DNA from: Clostridia bacterium
GTDB taxonomy: Bacteria > Bacillota_A > Clostridia > Oscillospirales > CAG-272
Direction of reading: 5' to 3'
DNA: 11,781 bases
NCBI GenBank assembly: GCA_017626655.1
Contig: JAGAIH010000387.1
Location: 1-11,781 of the forward strand
Of this stretch, positions 4,470-9,203 are shown in pieces. Numbering within the stretch: position 1 is the stretch's first letter; the number at the start of each line of letters is the position of its first letter. The notes under the pieces are model-generated. The model was not told the DNA's origin, did no database searches, and saw nothing but the letters and a program-made list of their open reading frames with translations. A program made the position numbers and the translations under genes.

Positions 4470-5729
4470 ATGTCCACCTACAACGAACTCATCAAAAACT
4501 TCGAGCGCATCCGTTCCTATATGCGGGATTTCTACGTGTACGGCTTCAAGAGCCGCGACGGGTATCAGTCCAAGAGCGCCCGCTCCTATGACGACGAGCG
4601 CCGCCGCATGGAGAGCTGGCTGGGGGACCACATGAGCTTTGTCCGTACCCCCGAGGGGAAGAATGTCTTCATCTCCATCGACAGCCGCACCATCCCCCAT
4701 AACCCCCTCTACAACGCCTGGAAGGCCAAGAGCTTCACCGACGGAGACATCACCCTCCACTTCATCCTTTTCGATATCCTTCACGACCCCACGGTACGCC
4801 GCAACCTCCCCGAGATCCTTTCCGAAATCGACGAAAAGTACCTGGCGGGCTTTCAGGCCCCCCTCATGTTCGACGAGTCCACCGTCCGCAAAAAGCTCAA
4901 GGAATACTGCGAGGCGGGCATCCTGATAGCCGAAAAGGAGGGCCGTAAGGTCTACTACCGCCGCGCCGACTCCACCGATGTGTCGAGCCTCACCGACGTC
5001 CTCCACTACTACTCCGAGGTCGCCCCCTGCGGCGTCATCGGCTCCTTTATTCTGGATAAGGAGGTCACCGATACCGACTCCTTCACCTTCAAGCACCACT
5101 ACATAACCGGCGCCATCGACAGCGGCGTGCTGGCCGCCCTCTTCACCGCCATGCGGGAGAAGCGGGCCGTCACCGTTACCAACATGAGCCGCCGCAAGGA
5201 TCTCCCCCGCCGCAGCCGCATTATCCCCCTCCGTATCCTCATCAGTGCCCAGAACGGCCGCCAGCACCTCTTCGCCTACCTCCCCGACTTCAATTCCTTC
5301 AACTCCTACCGCGTGGACTACCTGTCCAATGTGAAGCCGGAGGATCCCACCCCCCGCTTCGACGAACTGCGGGCCGAGCTGGATCGGATGCAGAGCAAGA
5401 TGTGGGGCGTCAGCGTCAAGCGCAACAAGTGGGGCAACGAGCATCTGGAGCACGTGGAGTTCACCATCCGCGTGGAGGAGGGCGAGGACTACATCGTCAA
5501 ACGCCTCTACCGCGAAAAGCGGGTAGGCACTGTAGAGAAGCTGGACGAGCATACCTACCGCTTCTATGCGGATGTGTACGATTCCAGCGAGCTGAAGCCC
5601 TGGGTCCGCACCTTTATCTGCCGCATCGTGAAGATGAACTTTTCCAACCGCACCATCGAGAATCAATTTAAGAACGATCTGAAAGAGATGTACCGTATGT
5701 ACGGCCTTGACGGGGAGGTGAAGCCATGA
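4470..5729 (+). CDS. WYL-domain protein with winged-helix N-terminus (first of pair)
   Basis: A 419-aa cytoplasmic protein. Residues of about 95-167 look like a winged helix: a helix-rich stretch from FDILHD to AGFQAPLMF, a recognition-type helix DESTVRKKLKEYCEAG (135-150), then a beta wing EKEGRKVYYRR (155-165). Residues of about 215-290 form the WYL domain, with GRQHLFAYLPD and the conserved Arg of SYRVDYLSNV (279-288). About 325-400 is the WCX-type extension. WYL proteins are usually transcription factors or effector subunits that sense nucleic-acid or nucleotide ligands through the WYL pocket. AAAGGAG precedes the ATG. The gene overlaps the next one by four bases (ATGA), so the two are translationally coupled and probably work together. 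Position just before the RNA array and Ro-like gene suggests control of that locus; this is inference. Confidence 0.85.
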   Translation: MSTYNELIKNFERIRSYMRDFYVYGFKSRDGYQSKSARSYDDERRRMESWLGDHMSFVRTPEGKNVFISIDSRTIPHNPLYNAWKAKSFTDGDITLHFILFDILHDPTVRRNLPEILSEIDEKYLAGFQAPLMFDESTVRKKLKEYCEAGILIAEKEGRKVYYRRADSTDVSSLTDVLHYYSEVAPCGVIGSFILDKEVTDTDSFTFKHHYITGAIDSGVLAALFTAMREKRAVTVTNMSRRKDLPRRSRIIPLRILISAQNGRQHLFAYLPDFNSFNSYRVDYLSNVKPEDPTPRFDELRAELDRMQSKMWGVSVKRNKWGNEHLEHVEFTIRVEEGEDYIVKRLYREKRVGTVEKLDEHTYRFYADVYDSSELKPWVRTFICRIVKMNFSNRTIENQFKNDLKEMYRMYGLDGEVKP

Positions 5730-6637
5730 TCTTTTCCGAGCTGTATTCCGCCTACTACAACACCGTGGCCGCCATCATCTCCCGTATCCTGGAGGGGGAA
5801 CGATCCGAAAAGGAGTTGCAAAAGATCGTCACCGAGCGAGCCTTCGGGGAGAGCGGCCTCACCATCCTCCCCTCCCTCAAGACCGAAAAGTGGCAGTTGG
5901 TCCACCCCGACATGACCACCCCTCTGGAGCATAAGCCCACCATGCCCCTCACCACCCTGCAAAAACGCTGGCTCAAGGCCATCTCCCTGGACCCCCGCGT
6001 CCGCCTCTTCGGGGTGACCTTCCCGAATCTGGATGATGTGGAGCCTCTCTTCACCCCCGAGGACTACTACGTCTATGACAAGTACGCCGACGGCGATCCC
6101 TTTGAGGATGAGGAGTACATCCGCCAGTTCCGCGTCATCCTGGAGGCCCTCCATAGCGGCTCCCAGATCAAGTTCGAGATGGTCAACCGCAAGGGCAATA
6201 CCATGTTCATCCGTTGCCGTCCCGTGCGGCTGGAGTATTCCGAAAAGGACGATAAATTCCGCCTCGTCACCGCGGGCTGGCGGGCCGTCTCCACCGTCAA
6301 CCTGGCCAAGATCCAAAAATGCGTCCACTACACAGGCGAAAAGCCCTCCTTCGGCCATGAGAAGGAGCCCACCTACGATACCGTCACCGTAAGGCTCCGG
6401 GACGAGCGCAACGCCCTGGAGCGGTTCATGCTTCATTTCGCCCATTTCGAGAAGCAGGCCGAGAAGCTGGGGAAGGATCTCTACCTCGTAAGGATCCGCT
6501 ACGTCCACGACGACGCCCCCGAAATGGTGATCCGTATCCTCTCCTTCGGCCCCCTCGTGGAGGTGATCGGCTCGGAGGAGTTCCGGGGACTGGTGATCGA
6601 CAAACTGAAAAAACAGAAAAATATTGGGTTAAGATAA
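5726..6637 (+). CDS. WYL-domain protein (second of pair)
   Basis: A 303-aa protein translated by the ATGA overlap with the first WYL gene. Residues 1 to about 90 are helical and hold no clear helix-turn-helix, though a degenerate winged helix is possible (SEKELQKIVTERAF, then WQLVHP). Residues of about 128-200 form the WYL domain (IRQFRVILEALHSGSQIKFEMVNRKG, FIRCRPVRLEYSEKDDKFRLVTA; counted as two separate pieces). About 215-297 is the WCX domain, with PEMVIRILSFGPLVEVIG followed by IDKLKKQ, typical of the family. Lack of an obvious DNA-binding head suggests that it acts as a partner of the first WYL protein, perhaps as a heteromer. The operon ends six bases later in a long terminator hairpin. 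Confidence 0.83.
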   Translation: MIFSELYSAYYNTVAAIISRILEGERSEKELQKIVTERAFGESGLTILPSLKTEKWQLVHPDMTTPLEHKPTMPLTTLQKRWLKAISLDPRVRLFGVTFPNLDDVEPLFTPEDYYVYDKYADGDPFEDEEYIRQFRVILEALHSGSQIKFEMVNRKGNTMFIRCRPVRLEYSEKDDKFRLVTAGWRAVSTVNLAKIQKCVHYTGEKPSFGHEKEPTYDTVTVRLRDERNALERFMLHFAHFEKQAEKLGKDLYLVRIRYVHDDAPEMVIRILSFGPLVEVIGSEEFRGLVIDKLKKQKNIGLR

Positions 6638-6642
6638 GAAAA

Positions 6643-6728
6643 CTGCGAGATTTTGCGGAAAACCTCTGATGATCCTGCGCCTTTTTGGCGGGATTTTCAG
6701 GGGTTTTCGTGAGTTCGCAGCTTTTTTT
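6643..6728 (+). terminator. Long hairpin terminator of the WYL operon
   Basis: A roughly 78-nt imperfect hairpin has nested arms: CTGCGA with TCGCAG (6643/6720 ends), GAAAACCTCTGA with TCAGGGGTTTTC, then ATCC with GGAT and CGCC with GGCG around a T5 loop. A run of seven T follows. It starts just after the stop codon at 6637 and isolates the WYL operon from the RNA array promoter that follows directly. Confidence 0.88.
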
Positions 6729-6730
6729 CC

Positions 6731-6759
6731 GTGATTCGGCAGGAAATATGTGGTACAAT
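6731..6759 (+). promoter_or_regulatory. Extended -10 promoter of the RNA array / Ro-like gene
   Basis: TGGTACAAT (6751-6759) is an extended -10 element (TGn plus TACAAT, five of six consensus). A weak -35, GTGATT (6731-6736), lies at 17 bases. Transcription would start near 6766, four bases before the closing stem of the first RNA unit. This tight fit supports the call. Confidence 0.65.
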
Positions 6760-6769
6760 GAGGGCACGA

Positions 6770-6908
6770 AAGGCGCGGACAGCAAACCTTTGCAGAAGCC
6801 TGTTAAGCTTTGATCGCAACACGAAGTTGCCGGATAAGTCCTCTAAAGGGACGCGTATCCCACAGACTTGACTTTGTACACCGAGCGACCGTGTCATAAC
6901 GCGCCTTG
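6770..6908 (+). ncRNA. Structured RNA unit 1 of the array (Y-RNA-like)
   Basis: The closing stem AAGGCGCG/CGCGCCTT (6770-6777 with 6900-6907, 8 bp) is followed on the 5' side by GACAGCAA and on the 3' side by G. At about 139 nt it is the longest unit. Inside, plausible hairpins are GCAAC/GTTGC around ACGAA, AAGTC/GACTT enclosing GGGA/TCCC, and ACAC/GTGT. Its 5' end lies at the predicted transcription start. Confidence 0.75.
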
Positions 6909-6910
6909 AA

Positions 6911-7018
6911 AAGATGCCAACAGCAAAAAAGCTATCATTGGCCCCTTAAGGAGCAGCTGTTCTTTGTAAGCAGCCACGAACGGTGTGAAAGACCCGTATG
7001 ATATGGAAGGGCATCTTG
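6911..7018 (+). ncRNA. Structured RNA unit 2 of the array (Y-RNA-like)
   Basis: The closing stem AAGATGCC/GGCATCTT (6911-6918 with 7010-7017) is followed by AACAGCAA. A second helix TATCAT/ATGATA stacks above it. The inner part includes a GCTG/CAGC hairpin and TGTGAAAGACCCG (6984-6996), which nearly repeats the sequence at the start of unit 5 (7263-7275). Only two bases separate this unit from unit 1. Confidence 0.75.
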
Positions 7019-7025
7019 ATCCCCA

Positions 7026-7115
7026 AAGGCACAAACAGCAAATGTAGTCTTGAAACTGTCTCGGCGTGTCAGGCATTGTGACCTCTCTCACCGAAATAAG
7101 ATAAATTGTGCCTTG
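7026..7115 (+). ncRNA. Structured RNA unit 3 of the array (Y-RNA-like)
   Basis: The closing stem AAGGCACAA/TTGTGCCTT (7026-7034 with 7106-7114, 9 bp) carries the AACAGCAA motif, whose first A pairs, and the 3' CTTG. Inside, TCGG/CCGA encloses a small hairpin GTCA-GGCATTG-TGAC (7068-7082) with a seven-base loop. Confidence 0.75.
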
Positions 7116-7186
7116 TAAAAGCTCTTACCGGTTAACAATTGCCAACCACTCGTACAGTTGGTGATTAACTTGCCGTTAAGTATAAA
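7116..7186 (+). other. Structured spacer hairpin A in the RNA array
   Basis: This 71-base gap between units 3 and 4 is not unstructured. A long imperfect hairpin (about 7125-7180) pairs CTTACCGG with CCGTTAAG (7 of 8), TTAA with TTAA and CCAAC with GTTGG. It lacks the ACAGC and AAG/CTT signature. It opens with AAAAGCTC right after the unit, as does spacer B, so the two spacers look related. No T-run follows, so it is not a standard terminator. Confidence 0.5.
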
Positions 7187-7264
7187 AAGATGTGAACAGC
7201 AAAGAAAAAGTAATTCCTTGTCAGATAAGGTCTGACCACTTGCGGGCGAAAGCCCCACATCTTG
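7187..7264 (+). ncRNA. Structured RNA unit 4 of the array (Y-RNA-like)
   Basis: The closing stem AAGATGTG/CACATCTT (7187-7194 with 7256-7263) is followed by AACAGCAA and ends in CTTG. Inside are GTCAGA/TCTGAC (7220-7236, five-base loop) and GGGC-GAAA-GCCC (7244-7255), a GNRA hairpin. At 78 nt it is the shortest unit. Confidence 0.75.
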
Positions 7265-7267
7265 TGA

Positions 7268-7350
7268 AAGACGCGAACAGCCATATCCGAACCAAGAATG
7301 CCGATGCATGGCACCCGCCATCTCGGAGGTAAGGCACCGATTGCGTCTTG
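7268..7350 (+). ncRNA. Structured RNA unit 5 of the array (Y-RNA-like)
   Basis: The closing stem AAGACGC(G)/(T)GCGTCTT (7268-7275 with 7342-7349, last pair G-U) is followed by AACAGCC, a one-base change from the usual ACAGCA. CTTG ends the unit. Inside, CCGA/TCGG encloses TGCC-GATGCAT-GGCA (7299-7313), again a seven-base loop. Confidence 0.72.
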
Positions 7351-7415
7351 CAAAGCTCCCGCCCGCCGGCGTTTGTGACCGTTGTGAGCGGGTGGGAGTA
7401 CCGAATCATGTTTTT
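7351..7415 (+). other. Structured spacer hairpin B in the RNA array
   Basis: This 65-base gap between units 5 and 6 holds a strong 11-bp stem (7356-7366 with 7388-7398, one G-U pair) made of CTCCCGCCCGC and GCGGGTGGGAG, with a 21-base loop. Like spacer A it opens with AAAGCTC immediately after CTTGY. TTTTT occurs at 7411-7415 but 12 bases beyond the stem, so termination is doubtful. CGAATCATGT here (7402-7411) recurs in unit 6 (7453-7462). Confidence 0.5.
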
Positions 7416-7495
7416 AAGGCGCAGGCAGCAGTTCTTTCGCTCCAAATATTGACGAATCATGTCAAAACCGCAATGCGAATGCGGTATGCGCCTTG
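7416..7495 (+). ncRNA. Structured RNA unit 6 of the array (Y-RNA-like)
   Basis: The closing stem AAGGCGCA/TGCGCCTT (7416-7423 with 7487-7494) is followed by GGCAGCA, the most diverged form of the motif. CTTG ends the unit. Inside are two neighbouring arms with seven-base loops, TTGAC-GAATCAT-GTCAA (7449-7465) and CCGCA-ATGCGAA-TGCGG (7468-7484), which resemble tRNA arms in size. Confidence 0.72.
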
Positions 7496-7501
7496 TCCTA
7501 C

Positions 7502-7573
7502 GCGGTCGGTAGCTCAGTGGTTGAGTGGGGACTTAAAATCCCCGTGATGTAGGTTCGATTCCTACCCACCGCA
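7502..7573 (+). tRNA. tRNA-like element, anticodon UAA (Leu codons), short variable loop, probably not a normal tRNA
   Basis: The cloverleaf is clear: acceptor 7502-7509 with 7566-7572, U8-A9 at 7510-7511, D-arm GCTC/GAGT with loop AGTGGTT, anticodon arm GGGGA-CTTAAAA-TCCCC with anticodon TAA at 7534-7536, five-base variable loop, and T-arm GTAGG-TTCGATT-CCTAC. Oddities are a bulged C (7507) in the acceptor stem, no base 26 if the D-stem is four pairs, no encoded CCA (A is followed by CA), and a class-I variable loop although bacterial tRNA-Leu has a long variable arm. It lies exactly six bases after unit 6 and six before unit 7. It may be a tRNA mimic or a processing signal that lets RNase P and RNase Z free the flanking RNAs. 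A real but unusual tRNA cannot be excluded. Confidence 0.65.
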
Positions 7574-7579
7574 CAATGA

Positions 7580-7666
7580 AAGGCACCAACAGCAACATCC
7601 ATGCCTACTGGAAGAGGGAGCGCAAGCTCCTGCGCGGGTTCGAGCCCCGCAATGAACGGTGCCTTG
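7580..7666 (+). ncRNA. Structured RNA unit 7 of the array, with YrlA-like tRNA mimic
   Basis: The closing stem AAGGCACC/GGTGCCTT (7580-7587 with 7658-7665) is followed by AACAGCAA and ends in CTTG. The inside reads like a reduced tRNA: a D-arm-like CCT-ACTGGAAG-AGG with the GG pair (7604-7617), a short hairpin GGAGC-GCAA-GCTCC (7617-7630), and a perfect T-arm GCGGG-TTCGAGC-CCCGC (7634-7650). CAT/ATG could form a short acceptor-like helix. This is the layout of YrlA-type bacterial Y RNAs, which join a Ro-binding stem to a tRNA-like module. It ends 43 bases before the Ro-like start codon. Confidence 0.8.
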
Positions 7667-7709
7667 ACCAAGATCAAGCAAAATTTACCACGAAAAGGAA
7701 GTGAGCTTC

Positions 7710-9203
7710 ATGTTAGAGTATCTGAAAACCGAGGCGAATACCGCCTACACCGAAAACGGTGCCGTGTCCAACGCCACCACAGGCTCCGACTGCCTCGATC
7801 TCTTCGCTACCATCGGCGCCCTCCGCCGCGCGAGCGATGAGGAGATCATCACCCGCTTTGTCCGCGCCTATACCGAGAACAGAGATGCCGCCATGAAGCT
7901 CCTGTTCTTCGCCCAGGATATCCGCGGGGGCCTGGGTGAGCGCAGAGTGTTCCGCGTCATCCTCCGCTGGCTGGCCTGCCATGAGCCCGCAAGTGTCCGC
8001 AAGAATCTGGCCTACGTGGCTGAGTACGGTCGCTACGACGATCTCCTGGCCCTCATGGGGACTCCCTGCGAGACCGAGATGCTAGATCTGCTGAAGGCGC
8101 AGTTCGAAGCGGACAATACCGCTTTGGAGAACGGCGGAGAGGTCTCCCTGCTGGCCAAGTGGCTCCCCTCGGTCAACGCCTCCAACCCCGAGACTGTGCG
8201 AAACGGTAAGCGGATCGCCCGCCATCTCGGTCTGACCGACGCCGCCTACCGCAAGGCCCTGGTGGCTCTCCGCGCCCATATCCGCATCATCGAAAATAAT
8301 CTCCGCGAGAAGGACTATACCTTCGATTACGAAAAGCAGCCCTCCAAGGCTCTGTACAAGTACCGCAAGGCCTTCCTCCGCAACGACGGCGAGCGGTATG
8401 GGAGCTTCATCAGCCGGGTCAGCTCGGGTGAAGCCAAGCTCCACGCGGATACCCTCGCCCCCTACGAGCTGGTGGAGCCTTACCTCAATGACAACTATTT
8501 CACAGCAAGCTCCCTCAGCTTCATGAAGCTCGTCACCGAGCAGGAAAAGGCGGTGCTGAACGCCACCTGGGCCTCTCTCCCCGACTTTGGCAGCACCGAG
8601 AACGCACTGGCCGTGATCGACACCTCGGGCTCCATGTACTGGAACGCCAAGCCCCTGCCCGCCGCCGTGGCTCTGTCCCTCGGCCTGTATTTCGCCGAGC
8701 ATAATACGGGTCTGTACAGGAACCACTTCATTGAGTTCTCGGCAAGACCTCAGCTCATCGAGGTCAAAGGCGAGACCTTCGCCGACCGCCTGCGCTACGT
8801 GGCCTCCTTCAACGAGGTGGCCAACACCAACCTGGAGGCGGTGTTCGACCTCATCCTGAACAGCGCGGTGAAGAACCGCGCCCTCCCCGAGGACCTGCCC
8901 GCCAAGCTGATCGTCATTTCCGACATGGAGTTCGACGTCTGTGTGGCCAACGCCGACAAGAGCGTGTTCGAGAGCGCCAAGGAGCGGTTCCGGTACCACG
9001 GCTACAAGCTCCCCGAGGTGGTCTTCTGGAACGTAGCCTCCCGCACCCGCCAACAGCCCGTCACCATGAACGAGCAGGGCGTGGCGCTGGTCTCGGGCTG
9101 TACCCCCCGCCTCTTCTCCATGGTAGCGAGCGGCACCGTGGACCCCTACGCGTTCATGATGGAGGTTCTCGGAAGCGAGCGGTACGCGGGGATCGTGGCG
9201 TGA
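7710..9203 (+). CDS. DUF2828/TROVE-type Ro60-like RNA-binding protein with vWA domain
   Basis: A 497-aa cytoplasmic protein. Residues of about 25-290 are a helical-repeat domain with DUF2828/TROVE landmarks: CLDLFATIGALR (28-39), FFAQDIRGGLGERRVFR (66-82), VAEYGRYDDLL (103-113), SLLAKWLPSVNAS (146-158) and a YRKALVALR segment (180-188). Residues of about 296-490 are a von Willebrand A domain with an intact metal site: DTSGSM (304-309), Thr373 and Asp405 (ISDMEFD). Ro60 proteins form a ring that binds misfolded RNA in its hole and Y RNA on its surface, and serve in RNA quality control and stress. ATG at 7710 is preferred over GTG at 7701, because AGGAAG (7696-7701) would overlap the latter. 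It follows the RNA array without a terminator, so protein and RNAs share a transcript. The gene ends 62 bases from convergent comEC, with no clear terminator between. Confidence 0.88.
   Translation: MLEYLKTEANTAYTENGAVSNATTGSDCLDLFATIGALRRASDEEIITRFVRAYTENRDAAMKLLFFAQDIRGGLGERRVFRVILRWLACHEPASVRKNLAYVAEYGRYDDLLALMGTPCETEMLDLLKAQFEADNTALENGGEVSLLAKWLPSVNASNPETVRNGKRIARHLGLTDAAYRKALVALRAHIRIIENNLREKDYTFDYEKQPSKALYKYRKAFLRNDGERYGSFISRVSSGEAKLHADTLAPYELVEPYLNDNYFTASSLSFMKLVTEQEKAVLNATWASLPDFGSTENALAVIDTSGSMYWNAKPLPAAVALSLGLYFAEHNTGLYRNHFIEFSARPQLIEVKGETFADRLRYVASFNEVANTNLEAVFDLILNSAVKNRALPEDLPAKLIVISDMEFDVCVANADKSVFESAKERFRYHGYKLPEVVFWNVASRTRQQPVTMNEQGVALVSGCTPRLFSMVASGTVDPYAFMMEVLGSERYAGIVA

What the first reader, a model, noticed from the sequence alone, without database searches (positions are those of the whole stretch)
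6770..7666. Tandem array of seven covarying stem-closed RNAs with a shared ACAGCAA/CTTG signature
Seven units share a closing stem that begins AAG and ends CTT, then ACAGC(A) after the 5' strand and G after the 3' strand. Inner stem pairs vary but stay paired: pair 4 is G-C in units 1, 3, 6, 7 and A-T in 2, 4, 5; pair 5 is C-G except T-A in 2 and 4; pair 6 is G-C except A-T in 3 and 7; pair 7 is C-G except T-A in 4; pair 8 is G-C, C-G, A-T or G-U. This is strong evidence of selected RNA structure. The interiors differ widely. I do not recognise the ACAGCAA signature from described Y RNAs, so this may be a new family whose members share one protein-binding stem and carry different cargo modules.
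Basis: partly seen in the sequence, partly recalled or inferred. Interest (0 to 1): 0.95.

Follow-up and report, generated by a model that had tools for sequence, protein, structure and literature searches.

The report
Ro60-linked array of tRNA-like RNAs
This bacterial DNA carries seven repeated units that share one covarying stem and a short sequence tag, beside a gene for a predicted Ro60-like protein; they likely make small RNAs that would ride on that protein, some with predicted tRNA-like heads, in what is likely a tRNA-damage repair system.

Summary
In detail: seven plus-strand units at 6770-7666 show the stem changes described. In 81 loci of the neighbouring DUF2828 gene the 5' tag occurs 266 times in 301 kb upstream, against 8 in 731 kb elsewhere; 262 of 263 tags with a candidate partner keep at least 4 of 5 inner pairs (80 expected). 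DUF2828 folds like Ro60/TROVE by prediction. In relatives the order is WYL-WYL-promoter element-array-DUF2828-RtcB (WYL in 66 and 67, RtcB in 63 of 81 loci); this window lacks RtcB. Of 18 phage or plasmid DUF2828 loci fetched, 12 carry such a stem right before [AG]CAGC, some closing YrlA-like permuted tRNA modules. In the bacterial arrays the tRNA-like heads are unpermuted (54 of 55 T-arms near the 3' end), and 48 of 77 such units have an anticodon-like arm, with varied anticodons. I read this as Y RNA-like RNAs for a Ro-like protein in a tRNA-repair cassette. RNA production in these bacteria, protein binding and function are untested; bait or adaptor roles are inference. It is a new variant of the Ro60-Y RNA kind, displaying the anticodon arm.

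The parts
4470..5729 (+). WYL regulator 1
   Evidence: Pfam WYL 8e-07; tblastn match upstream in 66 of 81 loci, window included
5726..6637 (+). WYL/WCX-like regulator 2
   Evidence: PADLOC WYL 2e-08; Pfam WCX below its cut-off; match upstream in 67 of 81 loci, window included
6730..6759 (+). conserved promoter-like element CGTGA-N19-TACAAT, 10 nt before unit 1
   Evidence: 46 copies of CGTGA-N16-20-TANAAT in 301 kb upstream of DUF2828 genes, 7 in 734 kb elsewhere, 4 on the minus strand; spacer 19 in 44 of 46
6770..6908 (+). unit 1: closing stem AAGGCGCG/CGCGCCTT, ACAGCAAA; hairpin with loop CTGTTAA
6911..7018 (+). unit 2: stem AAGATGCC/GGCATCTT, ACAGCAAA; aligns with the ~110-nt tRNA-like class G
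7026..7115 (+). unit 3: stem AAGGCACAA/TTGTGCCTT, ACAGCAAA
7116..7186 (+). non-unit module (CGGTTAACAATTG ... GATTAACTTGCCG)
   Evidence: 7119-7186 folds at -16.7 kcal/mol, z -2.0; near copies in L001, L002, L004, L005
7187..7264 (+). unit 4: stem AAGATGTG/CACATCTT, ACAGCAAA
7268..7350 (+). unit 5: stem AAGACGCGA/TTGCGTCTT (G-U at pair 8), ACAGCCA
7351..7415 (+). strong hairpin between units 5 and 6
   Evidence: -29.5 kcal/mol, z -4.3
7416..7495 (+). unit 6: stem AAGGCGCA/TGCGCCTT, GCAGCAG
7502..7574 (+). tRNA-like element called tRNA-Leu(TAA), 73 nt
   Evidence: ARAGORN; Rfam tRNA 41 bits
7580..7666 (+). unit 7: stem AAGGCACC/GGTGCCTT, ACAGCAAC; canonical T-arm GCGGG-TTCGAGC-CCCGC; GCAA tetraloop hairpin in place of an anticodon loop
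7710..9203 (+). DUF2828/DUF7788 protein, predicted Ro60/TROVE fold

Best explanation
The region carries an array of seven units with a shared covarying stem and [AG]CAGC tag, which likely give Y RNA-like small RNAs that would dock by that stem on the neighbouring predicted Ro60-like DUF2828 protein and hold out different, in part predicted tRNA-like, heads, as part of what is likely a tRNA-damage repair cassette. Shown by sequence: the units, their stem covariation, tags upstream of DUF2828 in 80 of 81 loci, the conserved promoter-like element, WYL genes upstream in most loci, and RtcB ligase genes in 63 of 81 loci (not in this window). Predicted: the Ro60 fold. Inferred: WYL proteins sense damage and switch on the CGTGA-N19-TANAAT promoter; the transcript is cut into single RNAs; the ring loads them; the heads recruit or occupy tRNA-handling enzymes, among them nucleases that cut anticodon loops, while RtcB rejoins cut tRNAs.
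For: Tag and stem. Ro60 fold. No classical TROVE match in any of 12 such genomes, so DUF2828 could fill that place. WYL order. Promoter element. RtcB: (50 of 63 start just past the DUF2828 end). tRNA-like heads: T-arms, a 5-bp, 7-nt arm at the anticodon position in 48 of 77 units, 34 with U33, versus 3.5 and 0.85 in shuffles, exact tRNA anticodon loops 32 versus 1.0, arm covariation. Same signature at phage Ro-like genes, with YrlA-like permuted modules by eye. In Listeria phage CKA15 a paper reports three highly transcribed unannotated regions within 2 kb upstream of the DUF2828 gene, which its authors suggest may be Y RNAs (PMC12282133, passages seen); I find three such units at L099 3651-3915, the last about 75 nt before that gene, but could not check that they are the same regions.
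Against: No expression or binding data for any of the bacterial arrays. RtcB is absent from this window and from 17 other of the 81 loci, some of them cut short. By two T-loop patterns 184 of 262 units (70%) have no T-like arm, and 23 of 80 loci with units have no class T or G unit. At the anticodon position 29 of 77 units lack a 5-bp, 7-nt arm, and window unit 7 has a GCAA tetraloop there. Six of 18 fetched phage or plasmid loci show no unit by my criterion. Related sequences inflate the counts.
Confidence: 0.8

Rival explanations
1. Adaptor model (same RNAs and ring, other use of the heads): the heads are tethers that bring different enzymes (for example PNPase) to a Ro-like ring for RNA decay or quality control, as reported for D. 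radiodurans Rsr and Y RNA, and are not baits.
For: Published Rsr-Y RNA-PNPase tether (PMC7790460 and PMC8394870, passages seen); the heads are too varied for one substrate.
Against: It does not by itself explain anticodon loops with varied anticodons or the RtcB neighbour.
Confidence: 0.4
2. The array is a graveyard of captured tRNA genes: tRNAs fell between stem repeats and decay, without function.
For: Whole tRNA-like genes lie between units; anticodon arms differ even between close relatives (A3 rows L015 and L027, with DUF2828 DNA 93% identical).
Against: Compensatory changes keep the closing stem, the anticodon-position arm and the T-arm paired (the T-arm and stem were also used to choose units); tag, promoter element and gene order recur across loci 63-95% identical to the query protein.
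Confidence: 0.07
3. A cis-acting leader: the stems regulate the downstream DUF2828 gene (processing or attenuation sites) and are not stable RNAs in trans.
For: The last detected unit ends 60 nt or less before the start codon in 58 of 80 loci; no terminator-like site was found between array and gene in the window.
Against: Unit number (1 to 9) and content vary widely, the gap to the gene exceeds 1 kb in 3 of 80 loci, units lie downstream of the gene in two mycobacteriophages, and a Listeria phage shows separate abundant transcripts nearby (PMC12282133, passages seen).
Confidence: 0.08

Closest known systems
Bacterial Y RNAs / YrlA with Rsr (Ro60 orthologue)
   Same: Encoded next to a Ro60-like gene; ends pair into a stem; tRNA-like module in some members; RtcB nearby in many relatives.
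   Different: Different protein family by sequence (DUF2828, no PF05731 match); stem plus [AG]CAGC tag; up to nine strictly tagged units per locus; tRNA-like heads unpermuted with the anticodon arm shown, whereas YrlA is described as resembling D, T and acceptor arms (PMC8394870, passages seen).
rsr-yrlBA-rtcBA RNA repair operon (RtcR-controlled)
   Same: Ro-like protein, Y-like RNAs and RtcB together (63 of 81 loci).
   Different: Two WYL regulators and a CGTGA-N19-TANAAT element; RtcR and RtcA were not searched for; no RtcB in this window.
Ro-like (DUF2828) genes of phages, e.g. Listeria P100/CKA15, mycobacteriophages
   Same: 28-56% identical protein in the listed records; a stem set right before [AG]CAGC in 12 of 18 fetched phage and plasmid loci.
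   Different: Few units, some with permuted YrlA-like heads; no WYL gene named in the annotated stretches shown (several without annotation); several sit in phage tRNA clusters.

Membership tests
Bacterial Y RNA | encoded next to a Ro60-type protein | tested here: met
   Tag upstream of DUF2828 in 80 of 81 loci; Ro60 fold by prediction only
Bacterial Y RNA | 5' and 3' ends pair into a conserved stem | tested here: met
   262 of 263 with at least 4 of 5 inner pairs, 80 expected
Bacterial Y RNA | at least one member per species with a tRNA-like domain (criterion recalled) | tested here: inconclusive
   57 of 80 loci have a class T or G unit; the window has unit 7 with a T-arm
Bacterial Y RNA | bound by the Ro protein in the cell | not testable with these tools
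   needs pull-down or gel shift
YrlA subfamily | permuted tRNA order (T, acceptor hairpin, D), the long stem in the anticodon place (partly recalled) | tested here: not met
   54 of 55 T-arm hairpins lie within 45 nt of the 3' end of the bacterial units; permuted order seen by eye in phage sequence of L095, L100, L107, L110
Ro60/TROVE protein family (PF05731) | sequence match to the TROVE model | tested here: not met
   Only DUF7788, DUF2828 and a below-cut-off GDE_C matched the window protein at E 0.1
Ro60/TROVE fold | full-length structural match to solved Ro60 | tested here: met
RNA repair operon | RtcB ligase adjacent | tested here: not met
   No match in this window (2.6 kb downstream available); match in 63 of 81 loci as a group
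RNA repair operon | RtcR regulator | not tested
   WYL genes lie there; RtcR was not searched for
Any Rfam family | match to a curated RNA model | tested here: not met
   Window: tRNA at 7503-7572 and four hits far below their cut-offs, none in a unit; 15 further loci: tRNA only

The most novel reading that the evidence does not exclude
The array is a heritable, fast-changing library of anticodon baits: a Ro60-like ring displays anticodon arms copied from many tRNAs (Arg, Met, Thr, Ile, Phe, Lys, Asn, Leu and others) so that tRNA-cutting toxins and phage-triggered anticodon nucleases strike the baits, the cut baits signal to the WYL pair, and RtcB mends what was cut.
Probability: 0.3. Interest if true: 0.95.

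Novelty: new variant of a known kind. Interest (0 to 1): 0.83.

Why it matters
Ro60 and Y RNAs are long known, yet what the RNA heads of Y RNAs are for is largely open. Natural arrays that put up to nine or more different heads on one constant stem, next to a tRNA ligase gene in most relatives, let that question be tested head by head. It would also give DUF2828, found in many Clostridia and phages, a candidate RNA partner and a recognition tag that can be searched for. If the bait reading holds, it is a new kind of defence against tRNA-cutting nucleases.

Tried and rejected
Sigma-70 promoter and intrinsic terminator scan over 6600-7720: none found, fewer than in shuffles, although a conserved element of another kind is there. 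The reverse-complement control for U33/R37 was uninformative, since U33 and A37 swap under reversal (U33+R37 0.33 on plus, 0.35 on the complement, 0.13 in shuffles); replaced by exact-loop sets and shuffles. My first arm finder stretched stems through G-U pairs and hid 7-nt loops (23 of 77); replaced by a fixed 5-bp, 7-nt frame. My first window scan printed nothing because it read the wrong file entry; repeated. DUF2828 in viral contigs: 41 pattern matches, no confirmed relative, while tblastn in named phage records found 673 of 50,697. PDB sequence search with the family profile: one chance-level hit, so the Ro60 link rests on fold. Helicase, DUF7336 and ComEC genes of the window have no match in the fetched stretches of the 80 loci and were set aside. 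A regex for the second module (7116-7186) found 5 copies upstream against 1 elsewhere and missed the window's own copy: too strict to count with. No covariance model was built; pair counting served instead.

Literature limits: searches for DUF2828, Y RNA/Ro60/tRNA-like, TROVE/WYL, YrlA/Rsr, anticodon decoys, phage Ro60 and RtcB/WYL listed no paper whose title or opening abstract describes an array of this kind; this covers one open-licence library and capped lists only. Papers opened, as passages only: PMC7790460, PMC7824862, PMC4810234, PMC8058203, PMC8394870, PMC12282133. Chen 2014, Chen 2013, Sim 2020 and Burroughs and Aravind 2016 are not held and were not read; PMC12282133 says that Y RNAs were identified in mycobacteriophages by Chen 2014, so the tag may already be noted there.

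Full report
What is there. The window carries two WYL-type genes (4470-5729, 5726-6637), then seven units (6770-7666), then a DUF2828/DUF7788 gene (7710-9203). The helicase, DUF7336 and ComEC genes around them have no match in the fetched stretches of relatives. The minimum-energy fold of each of the seven units closes the stem. Rfam recognises only one tRNA-like element at 7503-7572, plus four hits far below cut-off outside the array.

Relatives. A protein search gave 7,887 homologues with E at most 1e-10 among the 8,000 candidates scored. A scan of species genomes found 440 encoded relatives, of which the best 80 were kept, 63-95% identical; most record titles name Clostridia, Oscillospiraceae or Lachnospiraceae, with a few others. 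A sequence-only 5' tag occurs 266 times in the 4 kb upstream of these genes and the window's, in 80 of 81 loci (65 with two or more; the exception, L077, has only 252 nt upstream), against 8 in the remaining 731 kb and 6 on the other strand. Among the 263 tags followed by a CTTG before the next tag, the best partner keeps at least 4 of the 5 inner Watson-Crick pairs in 262; with partners shuffled it is 80. Taking the first CTTG only, it is 230 of 263. In 8 genomes searched whole, every run of two or more tags within 1 kb lies at the DUF2828 locus (6 genomes); single matches are scattered elsewhere, about as often as the backward control pattern. In 147 genomes drawn from the class of L007's genome (the tool does not name it), 6 have DUF2828 over the cut-off, and all 6 show at least one tag within about 1.5 kb upstream; one of the six is L007's own genome and two have a single tag.

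The cassette. WYL1 is found upstream in 66 and WYL2 in 67 of 81 loci, the window included. CGTGA-N16-20-TANAAT occurs 46 times upstream of DUF2828 in 44 loci, 7 times in 734 kb elsewhere and 4 times on the minus strand, the spacer being 19 in 44 of 46; 25 of the 46 end 7-16 nt before the next detected unit; the window has it at 6730-6759. RtcB is confirmed by Pfam in three loci and matched by tblastn in 63 of 81, 50 of them starting 1,509-1,658 nt after the DUF2828 start, that is just past its end. The window has no RtcB in the 2.6 kb downstream. I take this as a counterpart of the rsr-yrl-rtcBA repair operon. Hughes 2020 describes that operon's control by damaged tRNAs and suggests that the YrlA tRNA-like domain may competitively inhibit an anticodon nuclease (PMC7790460, passages seen).

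The heads. The 262 units are 49 to 166 nt long, 1 to 9 per locus. By T-loop pattern, 55 have a canonical T-arm, 23 a UGA[AG]A loop, 184 neither; 57 of 80 loci have at least one of the first two kinds. Using 277 units of a looser scan, 32 hairpins carry a 7-nt loop identical to one of 55 U33-bearing anticodon loops of 133 tRNAs outside the arrays, against 1.0 in shuffles (maximum 5 of 100), 0 for the reversed and 1 for the reverse-complement loop set. Of 77 units with a T-like arm, 48 have a 5-bp, 7-nt hairpin at the anticodon position (shuffles 3.5, maximum 11 of 200), 34 with U33 (0.85, maximum 5) and 29 with U33 and R37 (0.43, maximum 3); 17 anticodons occur among the 34. The other 29 units have other arms, some of them tetraloops, as window unit 7 does. 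In alignments of 31 and 33 units, 95.1% and 93.7% of cells pair; all five pairs of the anticodon-position helix change on both sides in each; covariation scores are 0.347 and 0.500 against 0.132 and 0.175 (0 of 500 shuffles), and slid partners drop to 34-48% paired. The weakest measure, further pair types in A4, was reached by 1 of 500 shuffles. Units are related, so these are not independent counts.

Turnover. Between the window and L002 (DUF2828 94% identical) most of unit 4 and the core of unit 6 have no counterpart; the tRNA-like element reads Leu(TAA) in the window and L001, Phe(GAA) in L002 and L003. L015 and L027, with 93% identical DUF2828 DNA, differ in one aligned unit mainly by its anticodon-position arm.

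Phages. DUF2828 homologues occur in 673 of 50,697 phage records and 4 of 72,556 plasmids. Of 18 such loci fetched (15 phage, 3 plasmid), 12 hold at least one stem of 8 or more pairs set within 2 nt before [AG]CAGC near the gene (shuffle expectation 0-0.6 per stretch): Listeria, Bacillus, Enterococcus, Staphylococcus, Campylobacter, Fusobacterium and Mycobacterium phages among them. Two pairs of loci (L095/L098, L096/L099) show the same units. The Vibrio, Salmonella, Escherichia, Aeromonas, Klebsiella and Jeotgalibacillus loci show none by this test, though the Klebsiella and Jeotgalibacillus ones have ACAGCAA tags by eye. Two mycobacteriophages, Bacillus phage FADO and the Klebsiella phage contain, by eye, a T-arm, an acceptor-like hairpin and a D-arm in that order, the YrlA arrangement. 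In the bacterial arrays 54 of 55 T-arm hairpins sit near the 3' end: the heads are unpermuted and the anticodon arm is free. For Listeria phage CKA15 the paper reports the DUF2828 protein in purified particles and three highly transcribed unannotated regions within 2 kb upstream (PMC12282133, passages seen); three units lie within 338 nt upstream of the gene. Whether these are the same regions I could not check.

Mechanism. Shown: units, covariation, synteny, promoter-like element. Predicted: Ro60 fold. Inferred: RNA production, stem binding, head function. The most economical reading is a Ro-like ring with exchangeable Y RNA-like adaptors in a tRNA-damage response; the boldest is a bait library against anticodon nucleases. 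Confidence in the Y RNA-like array reading 0.8, in the bait role 0.3.

Noticed in passing
window 7502-7574: Called tRNA-Leu(TAA) but only 73 nt, without the long variable arm usual for bacterial Leu tRNAs (recalled); L002 and L003 have a Phe(GAA) call at the matching place, so it may be a changed tRNA-Phe-like element inside the array.
   Followed up: partly
window 7116-7186; L001, L002, L004, L005, L041: A second recurrent structured module without the closing stem, with conserved CCGTTA and TTCACTTGCCG-like arms; three tandem variants by eye in L041 at 6275-6437.
   Followed up: partly
L035, L043, L048: 26-28 tRNA calls per locus, nearly all just upstream of the DUF2828 units, with no WYL match; resembles phage loci where DUF2828 sits in tRNA clusters.
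   Followed up: no
L041 about -2571 and L049 about -1771 from DUF2828: A second copy of the CGTGA-N19-TANAAT element about 1.26 kb before the array promoter.
   Followed up: no
L096, L099 (Listeria phages); L104 (Salmonella phage Munch): An RtcB-type ligase starts about 1.3 kb after the end of the Listeria phage DUF2828 gene; Munch has an RNA_ligase-domain gene just upstream of its DUF2828 gene.
   Followed up: partly
literature listing: The four papers that hold the word DUF2828 are on plants (listing only), so the Ro60-like fold of DUF2828 may matter beyond bacteria.
   Followed up: no
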